A DNA stretch of 32,055 nucleotides, from the IMG/VR virus record IMGVR_UViG_3300013006_002374, positions 1-32,055 of that record; one strand, written 5' to 3'. Below the pieces are notes generated by a model. It searched no databases and had not been told where the DNA came from. It saw only the letters and a program-made list of their open reading frames with translations. This DNA is from a virus. Made by a program: the position numbers and the translations under genes. Of the stretch, positions 16,068 through 30,211 are shown in pieces (positions within the stretch are counted from its first letter, which is position 1; each line of letters starts with the position of its first letter).

Positions 16068-16883
16068 ATGCCAACATTTAATAATGTTAATATTAAAGAG
16101 CTAAATCAAGTCGAGGAGATAGTCAATGGTGATTATCTTATAACCGAGACAGAAAACGGTACAAATATAATTGACTTTAGAAATTTTGTTGTCGGTCCTA
16201 ACAATGTTAGTTTTTATACTGCTTTTGCTGCAGTTAGCACCCAAGTCGTTTCGTTAAGTGCAGATTTAGGTAATAAGCCTTCCGGGTTTACCGCGGCCTT
16301 GGTTTATAACAGTGGCACTGGCACAGTACCCATACCTTCTGGAGTTAAGAATTTGAAAGTTACTGTTGTGGGTGGCGGAGGCGGTGGAGGTGCTGCATCT
16401 GTTACAGGTGCAGCAGGTGCAGGCGGCGGTTCTGGAAGTTTGGCAATCAAGTACTTCACCAATGTGACTGGTTCATTTGTATACACTGTTGGTGCAGGTG
16501 GTGGCACAGGTGCTGCAGGCAATGCTTCAACCATTGTAGTTGGCTCAACAACTGTCACCGGCAATGGCGGTGGTGGTGGTAGTGCAGGTACGGCTAGTCA
16601 GGTGGTTGCAGGAGGCGCAGGTGGTACCACAGGTACAAATGGTGATTATAATGCTGTTGGTTCAGCAGGTGGAAATGGTATTGGAGGTGCTACTACTGCA
16701 ACATCAAGCGGTGGTAGTGGTGCGCAGGGATATTTGGGTATGGGCAGTGGTCGTGGTGGTTTCGGCAGTGGTGGTGTAGGTGCAAACGGTGCCACAGGCA
16801 CAGGTGCAGGTGGAGGTGGTAGTAGCGGAATTTCTGGTACAGGTGGAACAGGTGGCAGCGGTGTAGTTATAGTTGAATATTAA
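16068..16883 (+). CDS. Glycine-rich tail-fibre tip/adhesin
   Basis: 271 residues. The first 85 residues are ordinary (NVNIKELNQVEEIVNGDYLI, NIIDFRNF), like a phage fibre attachment domain. From about residue 100 the chain is dominated by Gly with short hydrophobic spacers (VVGGGGGGGAA, GNGGGGGSAG, GTGAGGGGSSG) and ends SGVVIVEY. Glycine-rich strings closed by such a hydrophobic beta end are typical of phage receptor-binding tips built of polyglycine-II helices (as in the S16 gp38-type adhesin). It is the first gene after the glycan island and is expressed from a late promoter. Ends on a TTAA palindrome shared with the convergent gene's stop. Confidence 0.72.
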   Translation: MPTFNNVNIKELNQVEEIVNGDYLITETENGTNIIDFRNFVVGPNNVSFYTAFAAVSTQVVSLSADLGNKPSGFTAALVYNSGTGTVPIPSGVKNLKVTVVGGGGGGGAASVTGAAGAGGGSGSLAIKYFTNVTGSFVYTVGAGGGTGAAGNASTIVVGSTTVTGNGGGGGSAGTASQVVAGGAGGTTGTNGDYNAVGSAGGNGIGGATTATSSGGSGAQGYLGMGSGRGGFGSGGVGANGATGTGAGGGGSSGISGTGGTGGSGVVIVEY

Positions 16884-17095
16884 TTGCTGTCTTTGTGAAA
16901 GGGCAAAGCACGAGTCATTTTGTGCAGAATCCTTTTATCATCAATCTTCATGGATTTTAACCGACTGTATTCTTTGTTAAACGCTTTAATAAATTCTTCT
17001 GATAAGGAGAAATTTCTAGGATAAAACAACCTACTAACAGTTTTGATAGATCTAAAATTTTCCATTAATAGATTGTATGTTTTGTCATAGAGCAT
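16880..17095 (-). CDS. Small basic protein with candidate capsid leader
   Basis: 71 residues, basic and helical. It opens MLYDKTYNLLMENFRSIKTV, in which NLLME|NF matches the (hydrophobic)-x-E cleavage pattern of T4 prohead-targeting leaders. A late-promoter motif (AATAAATA) sits four bases before the ATG. The stop shares TTAA with the convergent adhesin gene. No family recognised; a small internal head protein is the best guess. Confidence 0.5.
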   Translation of the reverse strand: MLYDKTYNLLMENFRSIKTVSRLFYPRNFSLSEEFIKAFNKEYSRLKSMKIDDKRILHKMTRALPFHKDSN

Positions 17096-17099
17096 CTAT

Positions 17100-17107
17100 T
17101 ATTTATT
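17100..17107 (-). promoter_or_regulatory. Late promoter motif
   Basis: AATAAATA, four bases before the ATG at 17095, within the 12-base arrangement [AG]ATAAATAATNN plus start codon that recurs at 18703, 22820 and 27729. Confidence 0.55.
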
Positions 17108-17801
17108 ACAAAATTCCCTTTTCTTTTGAAGCTAACCCCTGTTGCTCTCTTAGTAATTTCTCCATTTTAGCGATCTCATCCATATTTACTAAGCTTTGCT
17201 CTTCACCATACATATTGCCATCTTCATTAACATACATTGAAACAAGATCAATTCGTTCATTTAAACCGCCTTTTAATTCAATAAGTGCAGGGCTATCATT
17301 GGGTGGAAAAAACGGCGATACACCACTTGTCTGCAATTGACTGTATATCGCTCTAAAGATATTATCTGTCTCGGAAATATATGTGGGGTCAGTTTCTCTT
17401 ACATTATTACTCTCTGCCGGGCCCATCAAATCTCTTGAGCACCAAAAGATAATATCCAAATGTCTCATGCTTTCTTTCACTAGCTCAATACATTCATTAG
17501 TAAATGCATCGGTAAATCCTTTTTTACCTTTATCAAGCGCCCAGATTGTATAGACTATATTATCCAGACCACACCTATCAAACGCTACCTTATCATGAGC
17601 GGTATATTGTTTTTGCTGGTTAAGCATAAACTCAAGAATAGCTTTTTGTAATTTTTTATCTGTCTTTTTGCTGTGATTATTTTCTGAAATTAAAGATCTA
17701 TAAGTCTCTTGAGGTGTTTTATAGCTAGTCCATCTCTGAAGAAAAGTATTTAAAGTAGTTGTTTTACCTGTACAAGCAGCACCACTAAAAGCTATTCGCA
17801 T
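17106..17801 (-). CDS. P-loop nucleotide kinase-like ATPase (AAA_28/NadR-like)
   Basis: 231 residues. Walker A is GAACTGKTT (residues 7-15). VAFDRCGLDNIVY gives the D-R-x-x-x-D-x-x-x-Y segment common to AAA_28/NadR kinase domains and dNMP kinases; DIIFWCSR is the probable next strand. The charged C-terminal 60 residues (QSLVNMDEIAKMEKLLREQQ) are helical. It may phosphorylate a nucleoside or ribosyl-nicotinamide. The NadR relation is suggestive, as an NMNAT-like gene lies in the same block (25866-26492). No leader-like N-terminus, so it probably acts in the infected cell. The ATPase fold is certain; the substrate is not. Confidence 0.65.
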   Translation of the reverse strand: MRIAFSGAACTGKTTTLNTFLQRWTSYKTPQETYRSLISENNHSKKTDKKLQKAILEFMLNQQKQYTAHDKVAFDRCGLDNIVYTIWALDKGKKGFTDAFTNECIELVKESMRHLDIIFWCSRDLMGPAESNNVRETDPTYISETDNIFRAIYSQLQTSGVSPFFPPNDSPALIELKGGLNERIDLVSMYVNEDGNMYGEEQSLVNMDEIAKMEKLLREQQGLASKEKGIL

Positions 17802-17830
17802 ACCTTATTTTATAGGATTTATAGTAATTA

Positions 17831-18703
17831 TCAACGATTAAAAAGATTCGCTACACCGCCAAATGCTTTCGTTTCTTTGTTGGATTTTTGTGTCATTCTG
17901 TCTTGATACCTATTCTTTATGACTTGTGGAGCATTTTCTAAATCCTCTGGACTCTGGGGTACTCCCTGTGCCACCTGTGGTGTCTGCCCAGTGAATACTT
18001 GTTTTACTACATCCATAGGAGCTGTATTTGACGTATCTTTATATGCTGTTGGGCCATAGCCCTGAGAATATATACCACCCGGTCCTGTATTTACACCAAG
18101 AGGAACATCTTTCGGTTGACCATACTCTACACTACCCTTTTTGTACTGTTTGCTAAAATCTTTAAAGGAGGGTATTGGCGGTACATATTTAGGACTTACC
18201 TGACTGCCTGTAGCTGTTGCATCGACCGCAGCTTGTGTTGGCGGCGCTACAGTAGTTGATATCGGTTCTCTAGTTTTATCTGGAGAAATATCTGCTGTAG
18301 AGTTACTAGGTGTACTTGTTGTAGATGCTGTTTGACTTTGAGGCGTTGGCACAATAGTCTTTTGATCCGATTCAGGTCTAGGTGAAACTGTACCCGGTCG
18401 CATTTTAATATCTTTTTTTTCTGGCTCTGCTGCAGGAGAAAGTGTACCAGGTAACATCTTTTGCTTACTTGGTGCACTATCCGGCGAAACTTGTGGCTGT
18501 ACTGTTGGTGCAGATTGCTTAGATGTTATCCCATGATGTATTGCAAGTGCACCCCCTAGAGTAATCAGCGGTGCCAATAACCCGGTAATGATACTACCTA
18601 TAGCAGGAGCAGCTGCAGTTGCAGCAGGTAAGACCAAGGGGGCAGCTACAAAAAGCTCGTTTAGTAGTTGGTTTGTTTTATTCTCGAATCTATTATTAAG
18701 CAC
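17831..18703 (-). CDS. Pro/Ser/Thr-rich protein with N-terminal hydrophobic segment
   Basis: 290 residues, GTG start. The first 16 residues (MLNNRFENKTNQLLNE) form a candidate capsid leader ending L-N-E, followed by a long hydrophobic region (about residues 19-56, rich in Ala, Ile, Leu and Gly) that could span a membrane twice. The rest is disordered-looking P/S/T/Q sequence with a repeated motif (MLPGTLSP, MRPGTVSP). This layout (leader, membrane segment, flexible tail) suggests an ejected or internal virion protein, but no family is recognisable. A GATAAATA motif lies four bases before the GTG. Confidence 0.55.
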   Translation of the reverse strand: MLNNRFENKTNQLLNELFVAAPLVLPAATAAAPAIGSIITGLLAPLITLGGALAIHHGITSKQSAPTVQPQVSPDSAPSKQKMLPGTLSPAAEPEKKDIKMRPGTVSPRPESDQKTIVPTPQSQTASTTSTPSNSTADISPDKTREPISTTVAPPTQAAVDATATGSQVSPKYVPPIPSFKDFSKQYKKGSVEYGQPKDVPLGVNTGPGGIYSQGYGPTAYKDTSNTAPMDVVKQVFTGQTPQVAQGVPQSPEDLENAPQVIKNRYQDRMTQKSNKETKAFGGVANLFNR

Positions 18704-18948: not shown

Positions 18949-19695
18949 CTATACCTTTAAAGCTTTATCCCAAATAACAAGCTGCAATCGAGGGCTAAAA
19001 TTAAACATATGTTCCTTGCATAGTTCAGCAACCATAGCTGCTTTTTCGGCCAGCTCAGCACGACTGCCACAACATGGCATTAACCACACTCTATTACGAG
19101 GCACTCTGACATCTGGAGCGTCAATATAATTACTGAACACTTCATCAAGATCTTCCTGCTTACTGATAACAAATTTAAAGCCAGATCCATTTCTTGCATG
19201 CCACGCTAACACTTCAGGCTTATATCTCTTTTCTTTCGGATCACCATTGTTAGCAAGTTTCGGTGAAGTCGTAAATGTGGCTTTATACTTGTCTGCCCAT
19301 TCTTCACGTGGCATAATTGTTGCGTTGGTCTCGAAATCAATAATAGGGGTAACACCATAGCGCTCTACGAAAGCTTCTACCAGATCCAGAAGCTTGTTCT
19401 GTTGAATGAGAGGTTCACCACCTGTAATCTTCCATATTGCACCGCTGATCAATCGCTTATCATATCCATTCTCTTTTAAATAATCAAGAATCTCACTAAC
19501 TGTAAATTTATTTTTAATGGACCAACTCACAAAGCTATCACACCCATATGGAGCATCAGCTGATTTAAACCCCTGACACGTCAAATTACACATTGAAAGC
19601 CGCATGAAAACAGATGGAATACCTGCAAATTCACCTTCTCCCTCAATCGTATAAAAAATCTTATCGTCGCTTAAGAATATCGTAGAATCTTCCAT
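18949..19695 (-). CDS. queE: 7-carboxy-7-deazaguanine synthase (QueE)
   Basis: 248 residues, radical SAM enzyme that rearranges 6-carboxy-tetrahydropterin to 7-carboxy-7-deazaguanine. YTIEGEGEFAGIPSVFMRLS is the QueE opening (S-x-Q-G-E-G-x-x-x-G-x-P-x-x-F-x-R), and WKITGGEPL (residues 88-96) is the SAM/substrate GGEP motif. The [4Fe-4S] Cys set is unusual: Cys36-x3-Cys40-x11-Cys52 (MCNLTCQGFKSADAPYGCDS), with Phe43 where the common C-x3-C-x2-C motif has its third Cys. QueD and FolE lie nearby; QueC is not in the window. Divergent from the PhoH-like gene. Confidence 0.9.
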   Translation of the reverse strand: MEDSTIFLSDDKIFYTIEGEGEFAGIPSVFMRLSMCNLTCQGFKSADAPYGCDSFVSWSIKNKFTVSEILDYLKENGYDKRLISGAIWKITGGEPLIQQNKLLDLVEAFVERYGVTPIIDFETNATIMPREEWADKYKATFTTSPKLANNGDPKEKRYKPEVLAWHARNGSGFKFVISKQEDLDEVFSNYIDAPDVRVPRNRVWLMPCCGSRAELAEKAAMVAELCKEHMFNFSPRLQLVIWDKALKV

Positions 19696-19748: not shown

Positions 19749-20507
19749 ATGTCGAAAAAAGACAGGGCACTTAAGAAGGCCGCCAAGTTTGCAAAAGATC
19801 AAGATGGTATTATAAGGCCAGATATCTTTCTCAACTTTAAGATAGATCAAAAGTTTCATTTTAATGAGAGGCACAAAGCCTTGGTAGATAGAGCCATGGA
19901 TGAATCCTCACAAATCATTTTTTGTGATGGTCCTGCTGGTTCATCAAAAACGTATTGTGCGGTCTTTGTTGCATTAACAATGTTAAAGGAAAAGAAGATA
20001 GATGAAATCGTCTACATAAGAAGTATCGTTGAATCCGCTACTAGAAAATTGGGTAGCTTGCCAGGTGAGGTTGATGAAAAATTTAAACCTTGGAGTATTC
20101 CATTAGTAGAGAAGTGTGATGAACTTGTTGGGAAACAGATAACCAATATGTTATTTGATAGCAATTATATGAAGTGTATCCCAGTTAATTTTTTACGAGG
20201 TTCAACCTTTATGAATAGTGTAGTAATTGTGGATGAAGCTCAAAACTTAGAGCATAGTGAATTAGTAACTATTTTAACACGTTTTGGGAAAAATTGTAAA
20301 TTGTTTGTTATTGGAGATACTCGACAATCAGATATCTTTGGTAAATCTGGGTTTGAAAGAATTATGAATGCCTTCGATACAGAGGAAAGTCATGCAAATG
20401 GTATAAACGCATTTCATCTTACCGAAGAAGATATTACCAGGAGTAAGCTATTAAAATTTATTGTCAAGATAATCTCAACAATAAAGATAAAGACTAATAA
20501 AGATTAA
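19749..20507 (+). CDS. phoH: PhoH-like ATPase
   Basis: 252 residues. The PhoH P-loop is GPAGSSKT (residues 61-68), followed by the family's VYIRSIVE (the 'x-x-x-R-P-x-v' strand) and LGSLPGEVDEKFKPW, and Walker B VVIVDEAQNLEHSEL (Asp162-Glu163). IGDTRQSDIFGKSGF is the sensor motif with the Q-x-D stretch. PhoH homologues are common in T4-like marine phages; the cellular role is unsettled (RNA-related ATPase, sometimes phosphate-starvation linked). Its stop shares a TTAA palindrome with queD on the opposite strand. Confidence 0.92.
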   Translation: MSKKDRALKKAAKFAKDQDGIIRPDIFLNFKIDQKFHFNERHKALVDRAMDESSQIIFCDGPAGSSKTYCAVFVALTMLKEKKIDEIVYIRSIVESATRKLGSLPGEVDEKFKPWSIPLVEKCDELVGKQITNMLFDSNYMKCIPVNFLRGSTFMNSVVIVDEAQNLEHSELVTILTRFGKNCKLFVIGDTRQSDIFGKSGFERIMNAFDTEESHANGINAFHLTEEDITRSKLLKFIVKIISTIKIKTNKD

Positions 20508-21213: not shown

Positions 21214-21498
21214 TTAAGGATTTAACTTGTTCTCTTTACACTCTTCACACTCACTACAATCACAGCCTTCTTTAGCATACTTGCAATGTTTCTCTACTGT
21301 CATTCCTTCTCTAAAAAACTTCTCGAGGAAATTATTAACAGTTTCATCAAAACTTTCTTTTTTAAGAAACTCTTTAATCTTTTTTTCTGGCATTTTAGCG
21401 GCCGCCTTCTTTGCTGCTCCAGTTACCTTTGATTTGCCTTTTTTAGCACCCATAACGGCACCAAAAAATCTTTTTTGTTTTTCTGTTTTTGATGGCAT
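21214..21498 (-). CDS. DUF3008-like small basic protein with Cys-rich tail
   Basis: 94 residues. The opening MPSKTEKQKRFFGAVMGAKK followed by TGAAKKAA is the lysine-rich DUF3008 pattern found in many phages and bacteria (M-P-x-k-s-x-x-Q-x-x-f-x-x-x-x). The second half is acidic and ends in a cysteine cluster (HCKYAKEGCDCSECEECKEN, one His and five Cys) that could bind zinc. AGAGGAAA before the ATG is a good ribosome site. Its ATG overlaps the stop of the upstream 440-residue gene. Nucleic-acid binding is inference. Confidence 0.6.
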   Translation of the reverse strand: MPSKTEKQKRFFGAVMGAKKGKSKVTGAAKKAAAKMPEKKIKEFLKKESFDETVNNFLEKFFREGMTVEKHCKYAKEGCDCSECEECKENKLNP

Positions 21499-22820
21499 TA
21501 TATTTCCTCTTTTATTATTTTTATTACAACCTTCAATTTATTTAGTTTTTCAGCAACAGATTTTCCGGCAAAATCAGGTTCTTTCTTCAATTCTTCGAAA
21601 AAAGCAATCACATCAGCCAGTTTTGATTTATCGTAACCCTTGAGATCTTGTGCAAACCCCATGAGAATGTCACTAAATTGAGGTAACTTCTCAGCTTCTT
21701 GATATGAACCTTCAAATAGATCTTTCAAAAGACGTTTTGCACGCACGGCATGTATCAATCCTTTACTGCTTTCTGGTGATTTATCCGCCACATTATATTT
21801 GATTATCTTTACAAACCAGATATCTTGAGTTAATGTTATTTGTGCGGTACTGTATCGCTTTTGCCCATCTATAATAAAGATAGCTTTGCCGGTTTTGCGT
21901 GGATTATCAAGTACCGAAAAGTCTAACATTATTTTGTCTAGCTTTGGATAGCTCGGATTAATGTCCGAAACAACATATTTGATACCTTCTGCAGAATAAT
22001 TAGCAGAGGCAACACTACCTTTTAACTGATACTTTACAGGTCCTTGATTGTACGACAACTTGGGTAGACCTGTAAAGTATACAGTATTACCTTTATATGG
22101 TATGTGAGGGTATTCCCTTGAACGTAGCTTCAGGGACTTAAGATCTATGAGATCTTGAACGTTTAAGGTTTTTAAGAATGAGGAGAGACGCGCTACTATA
22201 TTGCGCTTGCCCAAAGCTAGCTCAGAAGCAGTGTCAATTGCAGAGGCTACCATACCTATACCTTTAGATATGCTACCACCATTTTCTAAGCTTTTAAGAA
22301 TACTGTTGGCCCTACTTTGCTTACGACCAAAAATCTCATCTAAATCATCACTTTGTGTTTCAGCAGGTTGTGCATTTGAGGCAGAGAGTGTAGCCGCCTC
22401 AGTAAATGTAGTGTTTAAAAGTGTTTCAGGATCGATGTTTGCCTGCTTCAAGAACGTTTCAACAAACTCTGGATTATTGCTTGCTTTAATTTGATTATAA
22501 ACAGGGCTTTCAGAACCATGCCCGGCTTTTATTAGTGCAGTCAGTAGGTTTCGTTTTAGGTTTTGAAAAGACGGATTTATTGTTGGTTCATCTACAGGCT
22601 CTATTTGTGAAGCGCCTACTTGCTGTATAGGACTAACATTTGGAGGAACATTTACAATATACACACTTACAGTTGTACCACATTCCTCCAACACATAACC
22701 TTCAAAGTGTGCTACATTCTCATATCCAAAAACTGGTAGTTCGGAAGGATCTACCTTTATTCTAACTCTCTTGAGCTTAGTGTTTCTAAGTGTGTTCTCA
22801 ATAAGTTTATTCAAAAGCAT
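21498..22820 (-). CDS. Large unknown protein with candidate capsid leader
   Basis: 440 residues. MLLNKLIENTLRNTKLKRVR: KLIE|N fits the leader cleavage pattern. The region after it has beta strands (VRIKVDPSELPVFGYENVAH); the middle is helical with low-complexity linkers; residues 250-340 are beta-rich (YFTGLPKLSYNQGPVKYQLK), suggesting an independent domain; the C-terminus is helical and lysine-rich. No known motif. A GATAAATA late motif lies four bases before the ATG, so it is probably a late virion gene. Best reading: internal head or structural protein. Confidence 0.55.
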   Translation of the reverse strand: MLLNKLIENTLRNTKLKRVRIKVDPSELPVFGYENVAHFEGYVLEECGTTVSVYIVNVPPNVSPIQQVGASQIEPVDEPTINPSFQNLKRNLLTALIKAGHGSESPVYNQIKASNNPEFVETFLKQANIDPETLLNTTFTEAATLSASNAQPAETQSDDLDEIFGRKQSRANSILKSLENGGSISKGIGMVASAIDTASELALGKRNIVARLSSFLKTLNVQDLIDLKSLKLRSREYPHIPYKGNTVYFTGLPKLSYNQGPVKYQLKGSVASANYSAEGIKYVVSDINPSYPKLDKIMLDFSVLDNPRKTGKAIFIIDGQKRYSTAQITLTQDIWFVKIIKYNVADKSPESSKGLIHAVRAKRLLKDLFEGSYQEAEKLPQFSDILMGFAQDLKGYDKSKLADVIAFFEELKKEPDFAGKSVAEKLNKLKVVIKIIKEEI

Positions 22821-22832: not shown

Positions 22833-22866
22833 TTGATTAATGAAGTTTATTACTATAATAACTCAT

Positions 22867-23520
22867 ATGTCTAATAAGAACAAGTTTGCTTTTGCTAATC
22901 ATAACCACCCACACTCCAAAGAAGAGACAGCACAAATCATAGAAAACGCTGCTAAAGCTTATGAAGCCTATATGGATGCTTTAGGATACGATTGGAGAAA
23001 TGATCCTAATAGTTCCAATACACCGCATAGAGTTGCAAAAGCGTTTGTTGAGGACTTTGCCTGGGGATGTTATAGTAACCCCCCTAAAGTAACTGCGTTC
23101 GATAATGTTGACCATTATGATGGTATGGTATGTCAGAATAATATTAAGCTAACGTCATTATGTTCACATCATCATGCACCGTTTACCGGTCATGCTCATG
23201 TTGCTTATATACCTTCAACGGGTGGCAAGGTTATAGGATTAAGCAAGTTGAATAGAATTGTAGATTGGTTTGCCCGTAGGCCACAGGTACAGGAAAACCT
23301 TACAATGCAAATTCATGCTTATATTGATAAGGTTTGTGAAAAGAATAATGGTGTTGCAGTAATGATTGAAGCAGCTCATACATGCTGTTCGAACAGAGGC
23401 ATTAGACATGATTCAACTATGCGTACTGCTAGAATGTCTGGTGCGTTTTTAGATAATGATGATAATTCACGAGCAGAGTTTTATAAGTTTGTAGAGTTCT
23501 CTCAATCTAATCGAACTTAA
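22867..23520 (+). CDS. folE: GTP cyclohydrolase I
   Basis: 217 residues from ATG at 22867; an in-frame ATG at 22840 would add nine residues, and neither has a clear ribosome site. TPHRVAKAFVEDFAWG is the family opening; SLCSHHHAPFTGHAHVAYIP supplies zinc ligands Cys99 and His102; GLSKLNRIVDWFARRPQVQE is the conserved core; HTCCSNRGIR gives the third ligand, Cys173. It converts GTP to 7,8-dihydroneopterin triphosphate, the substrate of QueD; with QueD and QueE, three steps of 7-deazaguanine synthesis are present. Stop shares TTAA with the convergent gene. Confidence 0.92.
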   Translation: MSNKNKFAFANHNHPHSKEETAQIIENAAKAYEAYMDALGYDWRNDPNSSNTPHRVAKAFVEDFAWGCYSNPPKVTAFDNVDHYDGMVCQNNIKLTSLCSHHHAPFTGHAHVAYIPSTGGKVIGLSKLNRIVDWFARRPQVQENLTMQIHAYIDKVCEKNNGVAVMIEAAHTCCSNRGIRHDSTMRTARMSGAFLDNDDNSRAEFYKFVEFSQSNRT

Positions 23521-23933
23521 GATGTAAGGTTATTGTTAATATTGACATTAACAACACCACCATTTTGCTTAATAAAATCCTTACAAAGTAACACAGGATT
23601 ATCTTGGTTACTTCTATCAGCAAGACTGAAAGGAGTTTTATTAAATTGCTCTTTACCAATACTGCAATCCAACTCAACAACAACTCTATCGTTAACGTTA
23701 TTATTACCTGAAACTGTAATACTATCCTTGATGGGAAGTTCCAATACTTTATCACCAATAGTTTTGAATTTTACATGACCAGGTTTAGCATCTTTTAATA
23801 CTATGGCATGTAGAACGTTATACCCGCTATTACCTGTGTCTACAGTAGCTCGTACATTTCCAACATGTTGAATAGTAATACCTTCTGTTGATCCGAGTAT
23901 TTGTTCATAAAAAAATTCTTTAAAACTACGCAT
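23517..23933 (-). CDS. RimB-like retropepsin (PF05618-type) with capsid leader
   Basis: 138 residues. The first ten residues (MRSFKEFFYE) look like the leader of neighbouring genes. The body matches the retropepsin-like RimB/'Zn_protease' group: NVRATVDTGNSGYNVLHA (family x-A-x-I-D-T-G-A-x-t-S-x-l-h-A, catalytic Asp32-Thr33-Gly34), NDRVVVELDCSIG ('R-x-V-V'), and FSLADRSNQDNPVLLCKDFI ('F-x-l-x-x-R-x-x-x-x-x-p-v-L-l-G-R-x-f-l'). Such single-domain retropepsins are expected to work as dimers. RimB enzymes trim RimK-added glutamates; no RimK-like ligase is visible here. Upstream ACTAAATACTTAAT is a weak late-promoter match. Confidence 0.7.
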   Translation of the reverse strand: MRSFKEFFYEQILGSTEGITIQHVGNVRATVDTGNSGYNVLHAIVLKDAKPGHVKFKTIGDKVLELPIKDSITVSGNNNVNDRVVVELDCSIGKEQFNKTPFSLADRSNQDNPVLLCKDFIKQNGGVVNVNINNNLTS

Positions 23934-23963: not shown

Positions 23964-24512
23964 ATGAGTAAGAAAAACGAGCTTATTAAAATTTCTGAAG
24001 CTTATAACGAAGTTGTTGTAAATGAATTAAACCTTGGACCTGGGCCGGAATCAACAGCAATGGCCCCTTCGAATAACACACCAACTGTCCTAAAGATAAG
24101 TGACAATAAAGCTTGTGAGGACTGTGAAGACGGCTGGGATGAAAAAACACCCACTGCAGGCACAGGAGAAACTGATGCAGATATGGCAAAGAATGAACTT
24201 TACAAGATGCATAACGCCTCAAAGCAATTATACAATTTAATTAAAGATGGTGAAGATCTCGAACCTTGGGTTTTCAGTAAAATTACAGTAGCAGCAAGTT
24301 ACATTGAAGGTGTAAGAAATTACTTAGAATATAATAAGTTTAAGAAGCAAGGTGAATTTGCACCTGATGGCGACGCACATGAATTTAAGATTGTTTCAAG
24401 AATCAGAGATATGCTACACGGTGAAAGTAAAGAGGTTCTCGAGACAGTATTGCGTCAAACTATTTTTAATCTTGAAGCCATCAAGACAATTGAAGAAAAT
24501 AAAGAAAAATAA
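23964..24512 (+). CDS. Virion-type helical protein with candidate leader
   Basis: 182 residues. N-terminus MSKKNELIKISEAYNEVVVN includes KISE|A, a good (I/L)-x-E|A leader pattern. A Cys-containing acidic stretch follows (ACEDCEDGWDEKTP). The C-terminal half is a long helical domain (MAKNELYKMHNASKQLYNLI, then EPWVFSKITVAASYIEGVRN) resembling a small domain I have seen in many T4-like marine phage proteins ('A-x-x-E-L-x-x-x-x-x-x-A-x-x-L-x-x-x-i ... l-e-x-W-v-x-x-K-I-x-x-A-x-x-y-i'). Exact late promoter upstream. Structural or internal virion role inferred. Stands alone on the plus strand between minus-strand genes. Confidence 0.6.
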   Translation: MSKKNELIKISEAYNEVVVNELNLGPGPESTAMAPSNNTPTVLKISDNKACEDCEDGWDEKTPTAGTGETDADMAKNELYKMHNASKQLYNLIKDGEDLEPWVFSKITVAASYIEGVRNYLEYNKFKKQGEFAPDGDAHEFKIVSRIRDMLHGESKEVLETVLRQTIFNLEAIKTIEENKEK

Positions 24513-24513
24513 A

Positions 24514-25869
24514 TTAAAATCTGCCACCCATCAGGCGATTCATTTTAGTAAAGTCTACCCGGTCAACAATCTTGACCTGATTATTGCCAACAAATAAAAC
24601 ATACCCTTCATCCTTAGCTTTTGCATAAGAACCATCAGGTAGCTGATAAAAGGCATGTGATGTTAATCTAGTGTCCAGCTGGGAAAGTATTTGCAGTATA
24701 AAAAACTTTACACGAACCATTTCATATGTGGCATGTATTAAACTTTCAAAACTTTTACGATGCATATCAAGAAATTTCATTATACTAGAAATCTTCTGTT
24801 CTCTTGCTGCTCTGCCTTTCTCGCCTAATTCCTCAATACCCTTACTGATGCGCTCATTAACAAATGCTTTGAACCCCTCATAGAACTGTGCTGTATCAAA
24901 CTTGGCACCTATCTTTGCGGCGCCAAAAATTCCATTATCCTCTAAATCTACCTGTTTATTTAAATAAATTTTTAATAGCGGCAATATCTGACCGCCTATC
25001 GATCCTTTTGCAGACGAAATATATTCTTGATCAAACTTATTATCAATACTATTGACATGCTTGGTAGCTGTAGCAATTGTTTTTTCTATATCATGTACCA
25101 TCTTGTCTGACATATCAAAAGCTACCTCACCGTAGTTACTACCTCTTATAAAGGCTTTAGTACCTTGACTGCTACTAATTAGTGACGATATGTTCTTTCC
25201 AGCTGGTTTTAATTTAATACTCTTACCGTTGTCACTGACAACCCCCGTGAACGAGTCATGAACTATAACACCAACATTGCTGCTATTAATACTAGCAAAC
25301 AACGGTGATTTGTCGTCAATAGGTACAGTATACATAATTGTATTTGGTTTAAACGCAATATATTCTTCATTCCCTATTCTGACTCTGCTCTTATCCGCAG
25401 GCGATGTAAAGAGGACGTCAGCTTGATATATTTTACCGCTGTTATCATATGCTGGTCTAAGATTTGAGAGCAAACTTTTTAGCTTAGTTGCAAGCTCTTG
25501 TTTGCCGCTGAAATTTTGGTCTATCTCTTGTTCACTATGTAATAGCTTGGCATTTTCTTTAAGGGTATCAGTACTTTCATCTATTACATATTTCAAAGCT
25601 ACAAAAAATTGTTTATTAGCTTCTGGACGAGGATCAGCACCAAACAAAATTGATGGTGCACCATCTATCTTTGCGTTAATCTCTTGCTCTGATTCAAATC
25701 CTTTTAATTTGTTTATTATGTTAGTAGCTTGTATAAGAAAATTATTAAACCCATTTTTTCCACCTTCTATAGCTAAATCTTCTAAATGTGAAAGGTGTGG
25801 CGAAAAGTAAGTATCTTTTTCGAGAAGAATTTCGTTTTCAGATAATATATAAGTTTTAAAACTAATCAT
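24514..25869 (-). CDS. KxDG ligase-like protein (DUF6267-like) with capsid leader
   Basis: 451 residues. MISFKTYILSE|NEILLEK fits the leader pattern (L-S-E). NAKIDGAPSILFG has the nucleotidyltransferase/ligase motif I K-x-D-G (Lys67, Asp69, Gly70), and FFVALKYV follows as in related phage proteins of the DUF6267 type. QADVLFTSPADKSRV could be the next ligase-like strand, YIAFKPNTIMYTVP another, and NQVKIVDRVDF near the end could supply a late Lys. Whether it adenylylates nucleic acid is not established. Start overlaps the stop of the NMNAT-like gene by four bases, so the two are coupled. Confidence 0.6.
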   Translation of the reverse strand: MISFKTYILSENEILLEKDTYFSPHLSHLEDLAIEGGKNGFNNFLIQATNIINKLKGFESEQEINAKIDGAPSILFGADPRPEANKQFFVALKYVIDESTDTLKENAKLLHSEQEIDQNFSGKQELATKLKSLLSNLRPAYDNSGKIYQADVLFTSPADKSRVRIGNEEYIAFKPNTIMYTVPIDDKSPLFASINSSNVGVIVHDSFTGVVSDNGKSIKLKPAGKNISSLISSSQGTKAFIRGSNYGEVAFDMSDKMVHDIEKTIATATKHVNSIDNKFDQEYISSAKGSIGGQILPLLKIYLNKQVDLEDNGIFGAAKIGAKFDTAQFYEGFKAFVNERISKGIEELGEKGRAAREQKISSIMKFLDMHRKSFESLIHATYEMVRVKFFILQILSQLDTRLTSHAFYQLPDGSYAKAKDEGYVLFVGNNQVKIVDRVDFTKMNRLMGGRF

Positions 25870-26492
25870 TTTACTAGCTTTCTGTAAATTTCTTGCTTAC
25901 CTTGAATTGCAATATCTGGTAAGAAAGTAAAGAATTTTGCTTCTTCTTTATTTTTTAATGCTTCTCTAGCCTGCGTGGCTGAAGCTAGTCTAGAAATATT
26001 ACCGCGACCGATCTTAGAAACATTTTTACCTACATAAATTTGTTTATTAGGACCAGTAAAGGCATTAAAGCGTACCAAATCTTCTTGACTTGCATATAAG
26101 TTTATAGTGTAAGGTGCAGGTGATCCTTGCAACATCTTTGCAATCTTGTCTGCATCAGGTAATGGATTAGCAACTTTCGGTGTTGGTGAAAATTGACCAT
26201 TATTCAATATATCAACAATCTGATAGATTGCAGTTACTGGAGACCCAGTAATAGTATGTATGTAGACATTTTCCGGCAGATACCCTTTATACATATTCCA
26301 AATCTCATATGAATCTGCCGTTGTAATACCATCTCGATCAGAACCTGAAATTAGTACAACAGCTATGTCGTTGTCGGTAGCCGCTTGTTTAGCAGTATCA
26401 AAATGTCCTTTGTGTGGTGGCTTAAATGCTCCTGGAAAAAAACCTATTGATGTACCGGTTGCTTCAAGTAAGAATTGTTTAAACGTTTTCAT
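25866..26492 (-). CDS. NMNAT-like nucleotidyltransferase with capsid leader
   Basis: 208 residues. The leader MKTFKQFLLE|ATG is nearly the T4 internal-protein form (MKTYQEFIAE|A). The enzyme body starts at once: IGFFPGAFKPPHKGHFDTAK gives the HxGH motif of nucleotidylyl transferases (His27-Lys-Gly-His30), VVLISGSDRDG is the next strand, and RLASATQAREALKN contains the late 'S-x-T-x-x-R' motif. NMNAT, nicotinate-nucleotide adenylyltransferase and cytidylyltransferase activities share these motifs; the substrate cannot be decided. Overlaps the upstream gene by 14 bases and the downstream one by four. Confidence 0.75.
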   Translation of the reverse strand: MKTFKQFLLEATGTSIGFFPGAFKPPHKGHFDTAKQAATDNDIAVVLISGSDRDGITTADSYEIWNMYKGYLPENVYIHTITGSPVTAIYQIVDILNNGQFSPTPKVANPLPDADKIAKMLQGSPAPYTINLYASQEDLVRFNAFTGPNKQIYVGKNVSKIGRGNISRLASATQAREALKNKEEAKFFTFLPDIAIQGKQEIYRKLVK

Positions 26493-27729
26493 CAGGCGTC
26501 CCTTGTGCAGGTTGAGGTTGTGAAGCTTGTACTGTAGTAGGAGCAGGGATAGGGGCAGATGTTGTTGTAGAGGAAGCAGGCGTTTCTGGTATTTTTCTTT
26601 GTTTTGTCTTAGTAGCTTTTGCTATTCCATCAGATGATTTACGTTTACCTATTAGCACCTTCGCACCATCATTAGCAGGTAATATATAAAATCTATTTTT
26701 CATTTTATTTAAGATTTCTGAAATTGATTCATTGTCTGTTATTTGTGCAGGTACACAATTTAAATAGGATGTTCTTTTATCTACAACAAGAAACCAATTT
26801 AGCCTATTTTTATTACAATATATTTTTAAAATTATTGCGCCAGCTATATCTCTACCTTCTTCAAACGACAAACTAGTCCTGTCACCTACAATGCTATTAA
26901 CTTCCGATTCAAAAGGCTTAAACGCATTATCTGCATATTTGTAATCTCCAAATGCTAAGTACTTTATTTTTTCTAATAGCGTATCTGGAGCAGTTATAAA
27001 ATATTCTTTTGGCTTCTTGTAATATATGCCGCTCTCCTTTATTCCCAACCTACCATCTATAGACTTAAGCTCTAACTTAATACCCCCTACCATTATATCG
27101 CCTTTTGAGTCTTCTTCACTAGATGAAGGTTCATCTTTAGAAGAGAGCTTTCTTCCATTAGCAAAAAAAGCTATAAAAACTTCTCCGGGGCCTACATTTT
27201 TACTCTGATCTTTTCTAGGTGCCTTATCTGTTGCTAGTAAATCATATAATTCGGTAATTTCGGGATAGCTAGCAATACTCTGCGCTGTAATATTTTGACC
27301 GTTAGCATTTAAGGCTTCAGCTAATACAGTTATAAATGAAATAAATGGTTGGTTCAATCTACTCAAAAAAAGTCTTTCACACTCTTTAAAAATTTCTTCC
27401 GTTAATGTAATATTAAGGGTTTGTAAAAAGTCTACTAATAAATTGTAGTTTCGAGCTGTGTAACAACCGGCATTTATTAATCTGTCTTTTACTATTTTTG
27501 CTAATTGATAATTACCACCTCTAGTTATTGCTGGAGAGATAACATCATCATAATATTCTTTATCTACTTCACCTTCTAGCGTAGCGGGATCATCTGCCTC
27601 CTGTTTATAGACTTTTATAGCGTCATCTTCTTCTTTTATAAACAAACGCACGCTTTGTCTAGGTAAGGGTGGAACTGGTTTACCTACAACATTTTCGGAG
27701 TATATCTCTTTTAAACTCTTATATGCCAC
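26479..27729 (-). CDS. PD-(D/E)XK-like protein with candidate leader
   Basis: 416 residues, GTG start. Opening MAYKSLKEIYSENVVG resembles the leaders of neighbours, though the site would be Y-S-E rather than L-x-E. GDIMVGGIKLELKSIDG holds Asp211, Glu220 and Lys222 with the spacing of a PD-(D/E)XK nuclease core, and Glu183 (GPGEVFIAFF) lies at the usual helix position. The N-terminal 170 residues are helical; the C-terminal 60 are Pro/Thr/Ala-rich and low complexity. A DNA-cleaving enzyme is possible but unproven. AATAAATA lies four bases before the GTG. It starts a coupled trio with the NMNAT-like and KxDG genes. Confidence 0.55.
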   Translation of the reverse strand: MAYKSLKEIYSENVVGKPVPPLPRQSVRLFIKEEDDAIKVYKQEADDPATLEGEVDKEYYDDVISPAITRGGNYQLAKIVKDRLINAGCYTARNYNLLVDFLQTLNITLTEEIFKECERLFLSRLNQPFISFITVLAEALNANGQNITAQSIASYPEITELYDLLATDKAPRKDQSKNVGPGEVFIAFFANGRKLSSKDEPSSSEEDSKGDIMVGGIKLELKSIDGRLGIKESGIYYKKPKEYFITAPDTLLEKIKYLAFGDYKYADNAFKPFESEVNSIVGDRTSLSFEEGRDIAGAIILKIYCNKNRLNWFLVVDKRTSYLNCVPAQITDNESISEILNKMKNRFYILPANDGAKVLIGKRKSSDGIAKATKTKQRKIPETPASSTTTSAPIPAPTTVQASQPQPAQGTPDENV

Positions 27730-27741: not shown

Positions 27742-27747
27742 AAAGCT

Positions 27748-28266
27748 TTATAAAGTTTTATGTTTATCTTCTTCTGTATCTTGCACATCATACCACCCAT
27801 CTTCTGTGGCATTAGGGAATCCATGCTCTTGATACCATGCATATTGAGATATAATCTCCATAGGGAAATCTTCATCACCAAACATGTTTCGTGCTGCCAA
27901 ACGAGGATTCTTGCGATTAGGCACCAATCTCTTCAATGTCTCTTGAAATGCCAAATCTAGCACTTTGTCTTGAGCTGCTCTGTTGCTTATATCCAGGTCT
28001 CTGGGCAAGAAAGCTGTGACCCATTCATAATCATATTTCAAACGCCTTTTGCCCGGGACTGTCTGTTCTGCATTTTCTTCTTTGCCCGCCTTTTTTGCAG
28101 CATGCTTGGCAGCAGCTTCAGGATTTTCCATCTTCCATTTGGCCCATCTCTTCTTGTTTATATCCCAACCCCTCTGTACTCTCTCCTTCTTTGCATCAGC
28201 ACTCTCTTCATTCTCTTGTAACTTGCTTCTGAATGCTTCAAATATCAAATGGTTGTCTTTGTTCAT
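27748..28266 (-). CDS. Basic protein with two candidate leader sites
   Basis: 172 residues. MNKDNHLIFEAFRSKLQENE contains two possible cleavage sites, I-F-E|A and L-Q-E|N. The next 70 residues are very lysine/arginine-rich (RGWDINKKRWAKWKMENPEA, then KHAAKKAGK), as in T4-type internal DNA-binding head proteins. The C-terminal 90 residues form a more ordered, acidic-aromatic part (YEWVTAFLPRDLDIS and HGFPNATEDGWYDVQ). AGTAAATA lies five bases before the ATG. Internal head protein bound to packaged DNA is the inference. Confidence 0.58.
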   Translation of the reverse strand: MNKDNHLIFEAFRSKLQENEESADAKKERVQRGWDINKKRWAKWKMENPEAAAKHAAKKAGKEENAEQTVPGKRRLKYDYEWVTAFLPRDLDISNRAAQDKVLDLAFQETLKRLVPNRKNPRLAARNMFGDEDFPMEIISQYAWYQEHGFPNATEDGWYDVQDTEEDKHKTL

Positions 28267-28270
28267 GTCA

Positions 28271-28624
28271 TTATTTACTTGTTTGTGTATTTACGTCTAA
28301 ATTAACAGCATCCATCTGCATCAACTTGATAATTTTGCTAAGCACTTCAGATGCATTCTTTTCATCAGTATCAGGTAAATCTTTCAGGACTTTAAGCTCT
28401 ATATCATCAGGGTTCATGAATAGTGCCTTCTTGAGTAGATTAATTAGAAAAACTTCACCTTCAGGAGTTAAAGGTTTTTGTTGTTGCGGCTCTGCTTGGG
28501 GTTCGGGAACTGCTTGCGGGGCAGCAACAGGTGCTTCAGCTGCAGGTACATTAATTTCAGGCTGTACAGGTGTTTGCTCAAGCAAATTACCGAATTTTGC
28601 TGCAATTAGATCATTAAATCTCAT
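28271..28624 (-). CDS. Small Pro/Gln-rich protein with candidate leader
   Basis: 117 residues. MRFNDLIAAKFGNLLEQTPV: N-L-L-E|Q fits the leader pattern. A proline/alanine/glutamine-rich linker follows (PEPQAEPQQQKPLTPEGEVF) and then a compact helical domain (FLINLLKKALFMNPDDIELK) to the end. Its ATG overlaps the stop of the upstream gene by four bases. No family known; likely a further internal or late virion protein. Confidence 0.52.
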   Translation of the reverse strand: MRFNDLIAAKFGNLLEQTPVQPEINVPAAEAPVAAPQAVPEPQAEPQQQKPLTPEGEVFLINLLKKALFMNPDDIELKVLKDLPDTDEKNASEVLSKIIKLMQMDAVNLDVNTQTSK

Positions 28625-28983
28625 GGAACTGTTGTTGGTGTAGTGGCGGTTGGTGTTGTGGCAGGAATTTGTGTTGATGCTTGTCTTAATTTACCAGTAG
28701 CTTCTTCAGCTTTCTTTTTTAACGCATCAGCAACTTGCTTATAAATTGTATCTAGTTCTAGCTTTTTCTTAGCAAGTTCAGGGTCTTGTTGTACCTTGAG
28801 AGTATCATCAATAACTTTTCCAAGATTAGGTGCTTGACTAGCAGATGAAGTCGAGGGTGTAGAAGGAGTTGAGGGTGTAGAAGGAGTTACACCAGCTATA
28901 CTTGATACATATTCCATAACCCATTGTGGCGGATCAATTTCTAATTTCTTGTACTTTTCAATAATTTGTAATAAAAACTTCAT
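28621..28983 (-). CDS. Small TPS-repeat protein with candidate leader
   Basis: 120 residues. MKFLLQIIEKYKKLEIDPPQ: I-I-E is a possible leader site, though a weak one. The centre carries a TPS repeat (TPSTPSTPSTPSTSS), partly built from an 18-base tandem repeat in the DNA; then a charged helix (ELAKKKLELDTIYKQVADAL) and a second P/T-rich tail (ATTPTATTPTTVP). Reads as a helix between flexible linkers. A CATAAATA motif lies seven bases before the ATG. Function unknown. Confidence 0.5.
   Translation of the reverse strand: MKFLLQIIEKYKKLEIDPPQWVMEYVSSIAGVTPSTPSTPSTPSTSSASQAPNLGKVIDDTLKVQQDPELAKKKLELDTIYKQVADALKKKAEEATGKLRQASTQIPATTPTATTPTTVP
28853..28888. repeat. 18-bp tandem repeat, two copies
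   Basis: GAGGGTGTAGAAGGAGTT occurs twice head to tail and encodes, on the minus strand, part of the TPS repeat of the 120-residue protein. A site of likely length variation between related phages. Confidence 0.85.
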
Positions 28984-28990
28984 TATAAGA

Positions 28991-28998
28991 TATTTATG
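28991..28998 (-). promoter_or_regulatory. Late promoter motif
   Basis: CATAAATA, seven bases before the ATG at 28983, overlapping the end of the upstream gene. Confidence 0.4.
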
Positions 28999-29539
28999 TT
29001 AAGAACAGCCCTAATTTTACCTTGAAATTACTATTCAATTCCCCTTGAATTTTTTGAATTCCGTTTTTTAATAAAAACTTATCCAGTTTTACGAGATCAG
29101 GTCGCTTGAGATGGCGTGCATATACAAAATTGACTCTAGCTCTAGCTTCTCGTCCTTCCCCTGTTGCTGCTGTCAATAGATCCACAAATTCAATAAACCC
29201 CATATCATCTACATATATACTTAGCGATAAAATTACAGACAGTTTGCGAAATAAATTAATTACAAACAGTTGATTGTCGCCTATATGTTCTGCTTGTAGT
29301 TCCTTAGGAATAAACAGCAAAAGCTTCTTACCACAACTAACATTATTACCTAATGTATCTAGAATAAAACTTACAACCCTGTAGACTATAAATCTTCTCA
29401 GCAGTCGGTTATTCTTTTCTAAATTGTATTTAAATACATCCTCTGTTACGCGTGGCTCAATTTCTTCAGTAAAAGCTCGCTGAATATCAATTAACTTGTA
29501 ATCAAGAGATTTTATGTCTTTAATATAACCCACGCCCAT
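28994..29539 (-). CDS. Unknown helical protein
   Basis: 181 residues. Mostly helical with hydrophobic cores (RRFIVYRVVSFILDTLGNNV, NLFRKLSVILSLSIYVDD). No leader, signal or recognised motif. Basic C-terminus (KVKLGLFLT). It begins 28 bases after the SegE-like gene's stop on the same strand, and its stop overlaps the late motif of the next gene. Position next to uvsY/uvsW suggests a replication or assembly role but nothing in the sequence proves one. Confidence 0.5.
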   Translation of the reverse strand: MGVGYIKDIKSLDYKLIDIQRAFTEEIEPRVTEDVFKYNLEKNNRLLRRFIVYRVVSFILDTLGNNVSCGKKLLLFIPKELQAEHIGDNQLFVINLFRKLSVILSLSIYVDDMGFIEFVDLLTAATGEGREARARVNFVYARHLKRPDLVKLDKFLLKNGIQKIQGELNSNFKVKLGLFLT

Positions 29540-29567
29540 ATTATAGATGAACTTATATAGCAGTCAA

Positions 29568-29981
29568 TTAAATTTTAAAATCCTTTGGAGGAGTACCAAT
29601 TCGGACATTAAGGATGCCGTTATAATATTCTTCACTGAGAATTACATCGCGATGTATTTGTTCTTTAATTTCTCTGTAGCCTAATTCCCATTTAGATCCG
29701 CAAAAGTGTAATATAGTAAAACGGAATTTATCTTTTCCATATTTCTCTATATCCGCATTTAGTTCATTTGAAGAGCCTGTATACATCTTCCAATCAGACT
29801 CTCTTAACTCTATTCTTTTATTCTTGCGCCCTTTGAGAGGTTTTCTTTTGAGCTTTGATATGCATTGCTTTTTACCAATATATTTTCTATTAGTCACAGT
29901 ATTGCAGATTTCATATATGAATCCAAATGCCCCTTCTTGAGGAGTAATACCTGGAGCTAATTCCCAGTGGCCGAAATTCAT
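29568..29981 (-). CDS. SegE-like GIY-YIG endonuclease
   Basis: 137 residues. GAFGFIYEICNTVTNRKYIG gives the FIY...YIG core (GIY-YIG variant), and LRESDWKMYTGSSNELNADI followed by EKYGKDKF and LSEEYYNGILNVRIG are the conserved later blocks of T4 SegE-type putative homing endonucleases. These cut DNA and help spread their own gene among phages; in T4-like phages the family is often a fixed free-standing gene. One base is shared with the stop of the leader-bearing gene upstream. No intron or split gene is visible. Confidence 0.8.
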   Translation of the reverse strand: MNFGHWELAPGITPQEGAFGFIYEICNTVTNRKYIGKKQCISKLKRKPLKGRKNKRIELRESDWKMYTGSSNELNADIEKYGKDKFRFTILHFCGSKWELGYREIKEQIHRDVILSEEYYNGILNVRIGTPPKDFKI

Positions 29982-30211
29982 TAGAAGTATTTAAACAAAC
30001 TTCTTCGTTGTACAAGAGGAACGCGCTTCTTTTTACCTTTTTTACCGACTACCGTTGCCCCTAAAAATTTAGGTATTCGCATATCACCTGGTGCATAAAA
30101 ATCGGAATTTCCTACTGCCCCACCATGTCCCATACTTGATGCATCACCGAAGACCCCACCTGCACCAGCAGTATTATCCTCTTGCATAACATATTCTTTA
30201 AACGTTTTCAT
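29981..30211 (-). CDS. Small Gly-rich protein with capsid leader
   Basis: 76 residues. MKTFKEYVMQE|DNTAGAG: a very T4-like leader. The body is glycine-rich (GGVFGDASSMGHGGAVGNSD), then FYAPGDMRIPKFLG and a basic tail (VVGKKGKKKRVPLVQRRSLF) that could bind DNA. The pattern fits a small internal head protein. Upstream on the minus strand lies CATAAATA (30244-30251, overlapping the uvsY start codon), a possible late promoter. Confidence 0.6.
   Translation of the reverse strand: MKTFKEYVMQEDNTAGAGGVFGDASSMGHGGAVGNSDFYAPGDMRIPKFLGATVVGKKGKKKRVPLVQRRSLFKYF

What the first reader, a model, noticed from the sequence alone, without database searches (positions are those of the whole stretch)
16880..30211. 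About a dozen unrelated proteins share a short leader resembling T4 capsid-targeting sequences
Leaders ending in (hydrophobic)-x-E occur in: MKTFKEYVMQE|D (30211), MKTFKQFLLE|A (26492), MISFKTYILSE|N (25869), MRSFKEFFYE|Q (23933), MAYKSLKEIYSE|N (27729), NLLE|Q (28624), HLIFE|A (28266), KLIE|N (22820), QLLNE|L (18703), KISE|A (24512), NLLME|N (17095) and IIE|K (28983, weakest). T4 internal proteins begin MKTYQEFIAE|A and are cut by prohead protease gp21 after (L/I)-x-E. The bodies differ: peptidase, nucleotidyltransferase, ligase-like, nuclease-like, DNA-binding. Inference: a broad capsid cargo delivered with DNA.
Basis: partly seen in the sequence, partly recalled or inferred. Interest (0 to 1): 0.85.

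Follow-up and report, generated by a model that had tools for sequence, protein, structure and literature searches.

The report
Phage tags that load head cargo
Several unrelated proteins of this T4-like phage begin with the same short tag that phage T4 uses to load proteins into its virus head, and the same tag sits on dozens of other unrelated phage proteins, some already found inside virus particles, so it probably marks proteins that are injected into the host together with the DNA.

Summary
Five class-1 leaders (MKTFKEYVMQE, MKTFKQFLLE, MISFKTYILSE, MRSFKEFFYE, MAYKSLKEIYSE) exceed chance. A sixth (MNKDNHLIFE|A) belongs to a second class, MNxDxKLIFE|AY. The other six leaders are not individually above chance.

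A scan of 2.9 million viral contigs for an N-terminal MKTFK[EQ]F gave about 80 unrelated bodies. Glu falls at residues 9-11 in 62/77, against 7/42 in bacterial genomes (P=1e-11). Glu sits two residues after a hydrophobic residue, tracking its position (P=2e-7), which is the T4 gp21 rule. T4 IPI itself begins MKTFKEF. A 92-kb near-identical relative encodes gp21, gp22 and gp23, and its scaffold starts MSTKTIKSILKE|A.

Published virion proteomics: in S-CREM2, 5 of 6 proteins fitting the T4 rule were detected in virions (P=0.003). Virion-detected cytidylyltransferases of S-CREM2, S-SCSM1 and S-SZBM1 all carry the leader. The genome-wide test in S-SCSM1 was not significant.

At one locus the leader is kept while the body is replaced. 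The 76-aa protein resembles the mature gp23 N-arm, in register with the predicted cut.

Verdict: a T4-type capsid-targeting propeptide on an unusually broad cargo. Cleavage and injection are untested.

The parts
29981..30211 (-). 76-aa protein, leader MKTFKEYVMQE|D (30179-30211); mature part resembles the mature N-arm of the major capsid protein gp23, then a basic tail (KKGKKKRVPLVQRR)
   Evidence: leader conserved in G001/G003/G004; 38% identity to gp23 of G001 over 56 columns, E11 aligned with gp23 E60 at the predicted cut, E=3e-5 for this single comparison; score 95 vs shuffled mean 36
25866..26492 (-). Cytidylyltransferase/NMNAT-like protein, leader MKTFKQFLLE|A (26463-26492)
   Evidence: PF01467 E=6e-4 (just under cut-off), phrog_3462 NMN adenylyltransferase; leader variants MLPFKQFLIE, MKSFKLFVE, MKTFRQFLTE in relatives; proteins of the same kind are in virions of S-CREM2, S-SCSM1, S-SZBM1 and carry the leader
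24514..25869 (-). DUF6267 protein with an invariant KxDG motif (ligase motif I-like), leader MISFKTYILSE|N (25837-25869)
   Evidence: PF19782 E=2e-50; leader MNSFVQFLKNE in G004, MMLDFKNFITE in phage C48C1; alignment. Not detected in the S-SZBM1 virion list, whose DUF6267 has no leader
23517..23933 (-). Small protein related to retropepsin-like/ATP-dependent zinc protease family, leader MRSFKEFFYE|Q (23904-23933)
   Evidence: PF05618 E=7e-6, just under cut-off; leader MVSFKQFFYE in G004
26479..27729 (-). 416-aa protein (D...ELK, nuclease-like by eye), GTG start, leader MAYKSLKEIYSE|N (27694-27729)
   Evidence: GTG and leader conserved in G001, G003, G004, though G003 has G in place of the E; first 29 aa shared with a non-homologous body at the same locus of G003/G004, E=1e-8 and 5e-7
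27748..28266 (-). 172-aa protein, second-class leader MNKDNHLIFE|A (28237-28266)
   Evidence: Leader MNRDNHLIFEAF kept in G001 while the adjacent segment is replaced; same MNxDxKLIFE|AY leader on several unrelated viral bodies
23964..24512 (+). 182-aa protein, leader MSKKNELIKISE|AY (23964-23999); moderate support
   Evidence: MSEKQEVVNLIE|AY in G004
17831..18703 (-). 290-aa protein, GTG start, leader MLNNRFENKTNQLLNE|L (18656-18703); weak to moderate support
   Evidence: GTG and Glu conserved in G001 and G003
28271..28624 (-). 117-aa Pro/Ala-rich protein, MRFNDLIAAKFGNLLE|Q; unproven
   Evidence: E present in G004 (LIELNE|Q) but the pattern is not above chance
28621..28983 (-). 120-aa protein, MKFLLQIIE|K; unproven, weakest
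   Evidence: Not kept in G004 (MRFLDSLHAKYSELQLE)
21498..22820 (-). 440-aa protein, MLLNKLIE|N; unproven
   Evidence: Identical only in near relatives; weak GmrSD_N-like match, E=1e-3 and below cut-off
16880..17095 (-). 71-aa protein, MLYDKTYNLLME|N; unproven
   Evidence: Whole protein conserved in near relatives, so leader conservation is uninformative

Best explanation
The leaders are T4-type capsid-targeting propeptides. During prohead assembly the N-terminal amphipathic leader (hydrophobic at residues 4, 7 and 8) binds the scaffold core (gp22). The S77 prohead protease (gp21) then cuts after hydrophobic-x-Glu. The mature enzyme or effector stays in the head with the DNA and is presumably ejected into the host at infection. 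Shown here: the leader, its register, its attachment to unrelated bodies, the presence of gp21/gp22/gp23 in a near-identical genome, and published virion detection of leader-bearing proteins of related phages. Inferred: binding to gp22, actual cutting, and delivery.
For: 1) T4 control: the strict pattern hits only IPII, IPIII and gp24 of 65 T4 genes, and IPI starts MKTFKEF. Published T4 work puts targeting at residues 4 and 7 and processing at 8 and 10 (PMC9026906). Glu in residues 9-11: 62/77 viral vs 7/42 bacterial, P=1e-11. 3) Glu follows the hydrophobic residue: Phi8 with E10 33:5, non-Phi8 with E9 13:1, P=1.7e-7. 4) G001 encodes gp21 (E=1e-37) and gp23; its gp22 starts MSTKTIKSILKE|A and its gp23 cut is predicted at CIGE|A. 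gp23 sites of other leader-bearing contigs read FLTE|A, FLYE|A, FLSE|A, NLME|S. Six of seven leader-bearing contigs over 70 kb have gp23, one weakly. 5) S-CREM2: 5 of 6 strict hits are among the 52 of 219 proteins found in virions, P=0.003: SAM hydrolase, APH-like kinase, cytidylyltransferase and two unknowns. 6) Virion-detected NMNAT/cytidylyltransferases of S-SCSM1 (MKSFLQFLKE|A), S-CREM2 (MKNFSSFLTE|A) and S-SZBM1 (MRFRQFIIE|A). 7) Leader kept, body swapped. 8) Leader bodies include ADP-ribosyltransferase (ART-PolyVal, 1e-23) and SAM lyase, kinds expected to act early in the host.
Against: S-SCSM1 shows no genome-wide enrichment (1/48 virion vs 2/234 others, P=0.43), and one textbook leader protein there (MKTFKQFMSE) was not detected. 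The relaxed pattern is not enriched in S-CREM2 virions (P=0.22). DUF6267 was not in the S-SZBM1 virion list, though that copy lacks a leader. G003 has Gly at the cleavage position of the 416-aa leader. Cyanophage authors could not exclude contamination of CsCl-purified virions. No virion data exist for this phage and no N-terminus was read.
Confidence: 0.85

Rival explanations
1. The leaders target the proteins to the prohead core and are cut, but the proteins act in assembly or inside the capsid and are not delivered to the host.
For: T4 IPIII has a reported role in head morphogenesis; the 76-aa protein resembles the gp23 arm and could act on the shell.
Against: Bodies include enzyme kinds with obvious host targets (ADP-ribosyltransferase, SAM lyase, kinase, NMNAT). 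T4 internal proteins are injected and counter restriction (PMC12373910).
Confidence: 0.2
2. Chance: amphipathic N-terminal helices with a Glu are common, and the resemblance to T4 is coincidence.
For: The bare hydrophobic-x-E rule is met by about a quarter of shuffled N-termini, so several of the twelve listed leaders are probably chance.
Against: Enrichment over shuffles, bacterial controls and a permuted start; dependence of Glu on the hydrophobic position; virion data; leader kept with swapped body.
Confidence: 0.05
3. The common N-terminus is a translation or expression element (start-region codon use, RNA structure) or a binding site for another phage protein, not a capsid signal.
For: Several genes lack Shine-Dalgarno sites, so sequence at the start could matter for translation.
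Against: Conservation is at protein level, with amino acids 2-3 free (MKT/MLP/MKS/MRS/MVS) while F4, F7, hydrophobic 8 and E10 are mostly kept; the feature tracks virion presence in S-CREM2.
Confidence: 0.05

Closest known systems
T4 capsid-targeting sequence (CTS) of internal proteins IPI, IPII, IPIII (Tequatrovirus)
   Same: Same first residues (MKTFKEF/MKTYQEFIAE), same hydrophobic positions, same hydrophobic-x-E end, same attachment to unrelated bodies
   Different: T4 IPs are mostly small anti-restriction proteins; here the cargo is mainly larger enzyme-like proteins in a distant T4-like lineage, with variable leader length and a second leader class
T4 Alt (head-packaged ADP-ribosyltransferase) and gp24 propeptides
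   Same: Enzyme cargo cut by gp21; gp24 MAKINELLRE|S fits the same pattern; an ART-PolyVal protein carries the leader in L110
   Different: No Alt homologue seen in the window; gp24 is a shell protein
Virion-associated NMNAT/cytidylyltransferase and kinases of cyanomyoviruses (S-CREM2, S-SCSM1, S-SZBM1, S-SM1 T4-GC190)
   Same: Same kind of protein, same leader, in virions by mass spectrometry
   Different: The papers report presence and leave contamination open; no targeting signal was seen described in the parts read
phiKZ/SPN3US head propeptides cut by divergent S77-like proteases
   Same: Cut C-terminal to Glu, many ejected internal proteins
   Different: Different protease branch and short motif; propeptides there have multiple cleavage sites and are not the short MKTF leader

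Membership tests
T4-type capsid-targeting propeptide | N-terminal leader of 10-19 residues with hydrophobic residues at 4, 7 and 8 | tested here: met
   Four leaders directly; the 27729 leader has the same spacing shifted by two residues; variants in relatives keep these positions. Not met for 28624, 22820, 17095, 28983.
T4-type capsid-targeting propeptide | Ends in hydrophobic-x-Glu (gp21 rule) | tested here: met
   Glu position tracks the hydrophobic position across ~80 bodies, P=1.7e-7; gp23 sites of such phages share the context. Exception: G003 416-aa gene has Gly.
T4-type capsid-targeting propeptide | Same leader on unrelated proteins | tested here: met
   About 80 body clusters; leader kept with unrelated body at one locus
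T4-type capsid-targeting propeptide | Phage encodes the S77 prohead protease, scaffold gp22 and gp23 | tested here: met
   In G001, ~89% identical to the window; gp22 is assigned by position between gp21 and gp23 and by sequence character. The window itself is a fragment and has no gp21
T4-type capsid-targeting propeptide | Leader-bearing proteins are in virions | tested here: inconclusive
   Published lists: S-CREM2 5/6 strict hits detected, P=0.003; S-SCSM1 1/3, P=0.43; both together P=0.003. No data for this phage.
T4-type capsid-targeting propeptide | Leader is removed at Glu by gp21 in the prohead | not testable with these tools
   Needs N-terminal proteomics or in vitro cleavage; indirect: the 76-aa protein aligns with gp23 in register with the cut
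T4-type capsid-targeting propeptide | Leader suffices to target a foreign protein; cargo enters the host | not testable with these tools
   Experiment required
Sec signal peptide (considered) | Basic start, hydrophobic stretch of 7 or more residues, small-x-small cleavage | tested here: not met
   By reading the sequences: charged and polar residues interrupt the leader, which ends in Glu
DUF6267 (PF19782) | Profile match above curated cut-off | tested here: met
   172.7 bits vs cut-off 27

The most novel reading that the evidence does not exclude
The T4 capsid-targeting leader is a general, portable loading signal of the whole T4-like superfamily, used by environmental phages to put dozens of unrelated enzymes and effectors into the head (with at least two leader dialects, MKTFKQFLxE|A and MNxDxKLIFE|AY), including a mini-protein that copies the mature N-arm of the phage's own major capsid protein.
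Probability: 0.6. Interest if true: 0.8.

Novelty: new member of a known kind. Interest (0 to 1): 0.7.

Why it matters
It turns a 10-residue N-terminal rule into a predictor of which 'hypothetical' or 'auxiliary metabolic' proteins of abundant T4-like phages travel in the virion. It offers a mechanism for the repeatedly reported, unexplained presence of NMNAT-like, kinase and SAM-hydrolase proteins in cyanophage virions. It makes the question of what these phages inject directly testable, gives a list of candidate anti-defence or takeover effectors, and suggests leaders that could load chosen proteins into phage heads of other hosts.

Tried and rejected
- A bare hydrophobic-x-E rule is too loose: about 10 of 42 expected by chance.
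- The relaxed pattern does not enrich for virion proteins in S-CREM2 (P=0.22).
- The S-SCSM1 genome-wide test failed and is reported as such.
- I expected the S-SZBM1 virion protein _139 to be DUF6267. It is not: DUF6267 is _141, undetected and without a leader.
- AlphaFold2 models: the 416-aa protein had low confidence (39.1) and the DUF6267 model (67.0) gave no significant PDB fold match. Searches against PDB sequences gave nothing for DUF6267 or the 138-aa protein, and nothing convincing for the cytidylyltransferase.
- tblastn of the G001 gp22 found no phage record; the 76-aa protein found none by tblastn either.
- Pfam search for gp21 in the window itself was negative, as expected for a fragment.
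- Sec signals rejected on composition.
- Literature searches found no description of such leaders outside T-even phages, but the library lacks most subscription papers, so priority is not established.
Full report
WHAT THE WINDOW IS. The window is a 32,055-base IMG/VR virus record. It carries UvsY, a SegE-type GIY-YIG gene and other T4-like genes. A 92-kb relative (G001) is ~89% identical over the right three quarters of the window and runs on, in its own orientation, to gp21, gp22 and gp23. Two further relatives are G003 (72 kb) and G004 (59 kb, more distant); G005 is remote.

THE OBSERVATION. All twelve leaders can be read. The gene behind 'KISE|A (24512)' is on the + strand at 23964-24512. 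Against residue shuffles, the window has 2 strict hits (0.10 expected), 7 relaxed hits (1.5 expected, two of them other genes) and 20 loose hits (10.3 expected). Deduplicated over 168 families of four genomes, strict hits are 3 against 0.29 (P=0.0024) and flexible hits 8 against 2.2 (P=0.0018). The core set is real. The six weakest leaders cannot be told from chance on their own.

CALIBRATION ON T4. T4 IPI begins MKTFKEF, IPII and IPIII MKTYQEFIAE, gp24 MAKINELLRE. The strict pattern hits only IPII, IPIII and gp24 of 65 genes tested. Reviews state that gp21 cuts after L/I-x-E, that targeting depends on residues 4 and 7 and processing on 8 and 10, and that the IPs share only this leader (PMC9026906, PMC3012670). 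A 2025 paper states that T4 Ip1-3 block different type IV restriction enzymes and share only the leader that directs packaging (PMC12373910).

SCAN OF VIRAL AND BACTERIAL SEQUENCE. It gave 126 reading frames and 80 unrelated body clusters. Among 77 likely-start clusters, Glu is at residues 9-11 in 62, against 7 of 42 in bacterial genomes found with the identical pattern (Fisher P=1e-11). A permuted start (MFKTFK[EQ]) is found in only 17 stretches, and that scan was complete. Residues 8-10 were not part of the search pattern. If residue 8 is hydrophobic the Glu is at 10 (33 of 38 unambiguous cases). If not, it is at 9, two after the fixed Phe7 (13 of 14; P=1.7e-7). That is the gp21 rule. Ala is the commonest next residue (9 of 39, against 6% elsewhere). 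Six of seven such contigs over 70 kb hold gp23, one of them only weakly. In the permuted-start control 2 of 6 contigs over 70 kb do.

INDEPENDENT VIRION DATA. S-CREM2 has a published virion proteome of 52 of 219 proteins (PMC10665884). The strict pattern hits six proteins and five are in the virion (P=0.003): SAM hydrolase MKDFDSFLEE, gp13 MKDLHSFLTE, APH-like kinase MKRFDAFLTE, a 237-aa protein MQTFSMFFSE and cytidylyltransferase MKNFSSFLTE|A. Its authors noted that such proteins might be contaminants. Other virion-detected NMNAT/cytidylyltransferases carry the leader too: S-SCSM1 MKSFLQFLKE|A and S-SZBM1 MRFRQFIIE|A. T4-GC190, detected in S-SM1 virions (PMC3037559), begins MKSFSQFLTE in P-SSM2. 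The same test in S-SCSM1 as annotated gave 1/48 against 2/234 (P=0.43), a negative result. Both phages pooled give P=0.003, driven by S-CREM2.

MODULARITY. The 416-aa gene at 26479-27729 and its G001 homologue share their first 29 residues, leader and GTG start included, with G003 and G004 (59-62% identity, E=1e-8 and 5e-7). The rest of the G003/G004 protein is a different, non-homologous body. The 172-aa gene keeps MN[KR]DNHLIFEAF while the following segment is replaced in G001. This second leader, MNxDxKLIFE|AY, occurs on several further unrelated viral bodies: 7 of 15 clusters found with a pattern that did not include the Glu. In phage C48C1 three annotated leader genes (DUF6267 MMLDFKNFITE, MLSFKQFVSE, MITFKKYLEE) lie beside a cytidylyltransferase whose unannotated upstream frame reads KNFSQYLLE.

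THE SAME SITE IN HEAD PROTEINS. G001 gp22 starts MSTKTIKSILKE|A, with the spacing of MKTFKQFLLE|A, and its gp21 starts MALRLLVE. Predicted gp23 cut sites in other leader-bearing contigs are FLTE|T, FLTE|A, FLSE|A, FLYE|T, FLYE|A, NLME|S, MLTE|Q, LFE|D and IME|A. These are the same contexts as the cargo leaders.

A GP23-ARM LOOK-ALIKE. The 76-aa protein aligns with G001 gp23 over 56 columns (38% identity, E=3e-5 for this comparison). Its E11|D12 falls on gp23 E60|A61, and both continue into Gly-rich VFG and YAxGDxRxPKxL segments. Similar small leader proteins of other contigs (L031, L043, L056, L136) and S-SZBM1_134 match gp23 arms better than all 200 shuffles each. In S-SCSM1 a 61-aa protein annotated as virion protein is such a look-alike (AVGAGGFTGSSAAEGPTAGYDPLMKFQRR vs gp23 AVGSDGFQGGSADAGPTAGFDPVLISLIRR). 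An upstream ATG would give it the leader MDKTDRVIQLIRE. This supports the cut site and suggests a capsid-related role. It is my reading and untested.

CARGO FUNCTIONS. In the window: cytidylyltransferase-like, DUF6267 with KxDG (ligase-like by motif only), a zinc/retropepsin-protease-like protein, and a nuclease-like protein by eye. Elsewhere leaders sit on an ADP-ribosyltransferase (ART-PolyVal, 1e-23), SAM lyases, a lytic transglycosylase-like domain and cytidylyltransferases. One leader-like start belongs to an HK97-type capsid protein (PF05065) and is probably a chance match. Structure prediction did not help.

CONCLUSION. The class-1 leaders are T4-type capsid-targeting propeptides with high probability (0.85). 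Loading into the head is supported by comparative and published data. Cutting and injection are inferred. The kind is known; the breadth, the enzyme cargo, the second leader dialect and the gp23-arm look-alike were not found described in the papers searched.

Noticed in passing
window 18949-19695, 20504-21166, 22840-23520; G001 (L013/L014) 57306-58049: QueD-like (phrog_2389), QueE-like and GTP cyclohydrolase I-like genes, with a QueC-like gene in the relative: a 7-deazaguanine pathway, possibly for DNA modification
   Followed up: no
window 18949-19695: The QueE-like protein has an unusual spacing of the cluster cysteines (CNLTCQGFKSADAPYGC)
   Followed up: no
window 3373-16004: Cluster of glycosyltransferase-like, sugar-reductase and methyltransferase-like genes, probably surface sugar or DNA decoration
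   Followed up: no
window 29568-29981: SegE-type GIY-YIG gene overlaps the 76-aa leader gene by one base; the order is kept in three relatives. PHROG 447 calls this family 'NAD synthetase', apparently a wrong label
   Followed up: partly
S-SCSM1 (MK867354) 93121-93306: A 61-aa annotated virion protein copies the N-arm of its own gp23; the annotated start probably misses an upstream ATG and leader
   Followed up: partly
S-CREM2 (OR473000) 7704-10313: The virion protein annotated as Cas9 nuclease has RFASFMAE|A at residues 18-25, a leader-like site after a possibly mis-set start
   Followed up: no
L194 and L208: Small contigs binned in a Saprospiraceae MAG carry MKTFK[EQ]F genes (two in one 3.4-kb contig): likely phage contigs in a bacterial bin
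   Followed up: no
L096 6505-9422: Four unrelated proteins with MKTFKQF leaders in 3 kb of one 14-kb viral contig, a dense cargo island
   Followed up: partly
L061, L067, L106, L107, L113, L118, L122 and others; S-CREM2 gp6: A recurrent family with leader plus SSLSRIKSKSDKGG resembles the N-terminal part of the S-CREM2 SAM hydrolase; likely SAM lyases carried in the head (anti-restriction)
   Followed up: partly
G005 (L025-L026) 35982-39532: A remote relative uses other leaders, MLINEIITE|A and MKINEIINE|A, close to T4 gp24 MAKINELLRE
   Followed up: no
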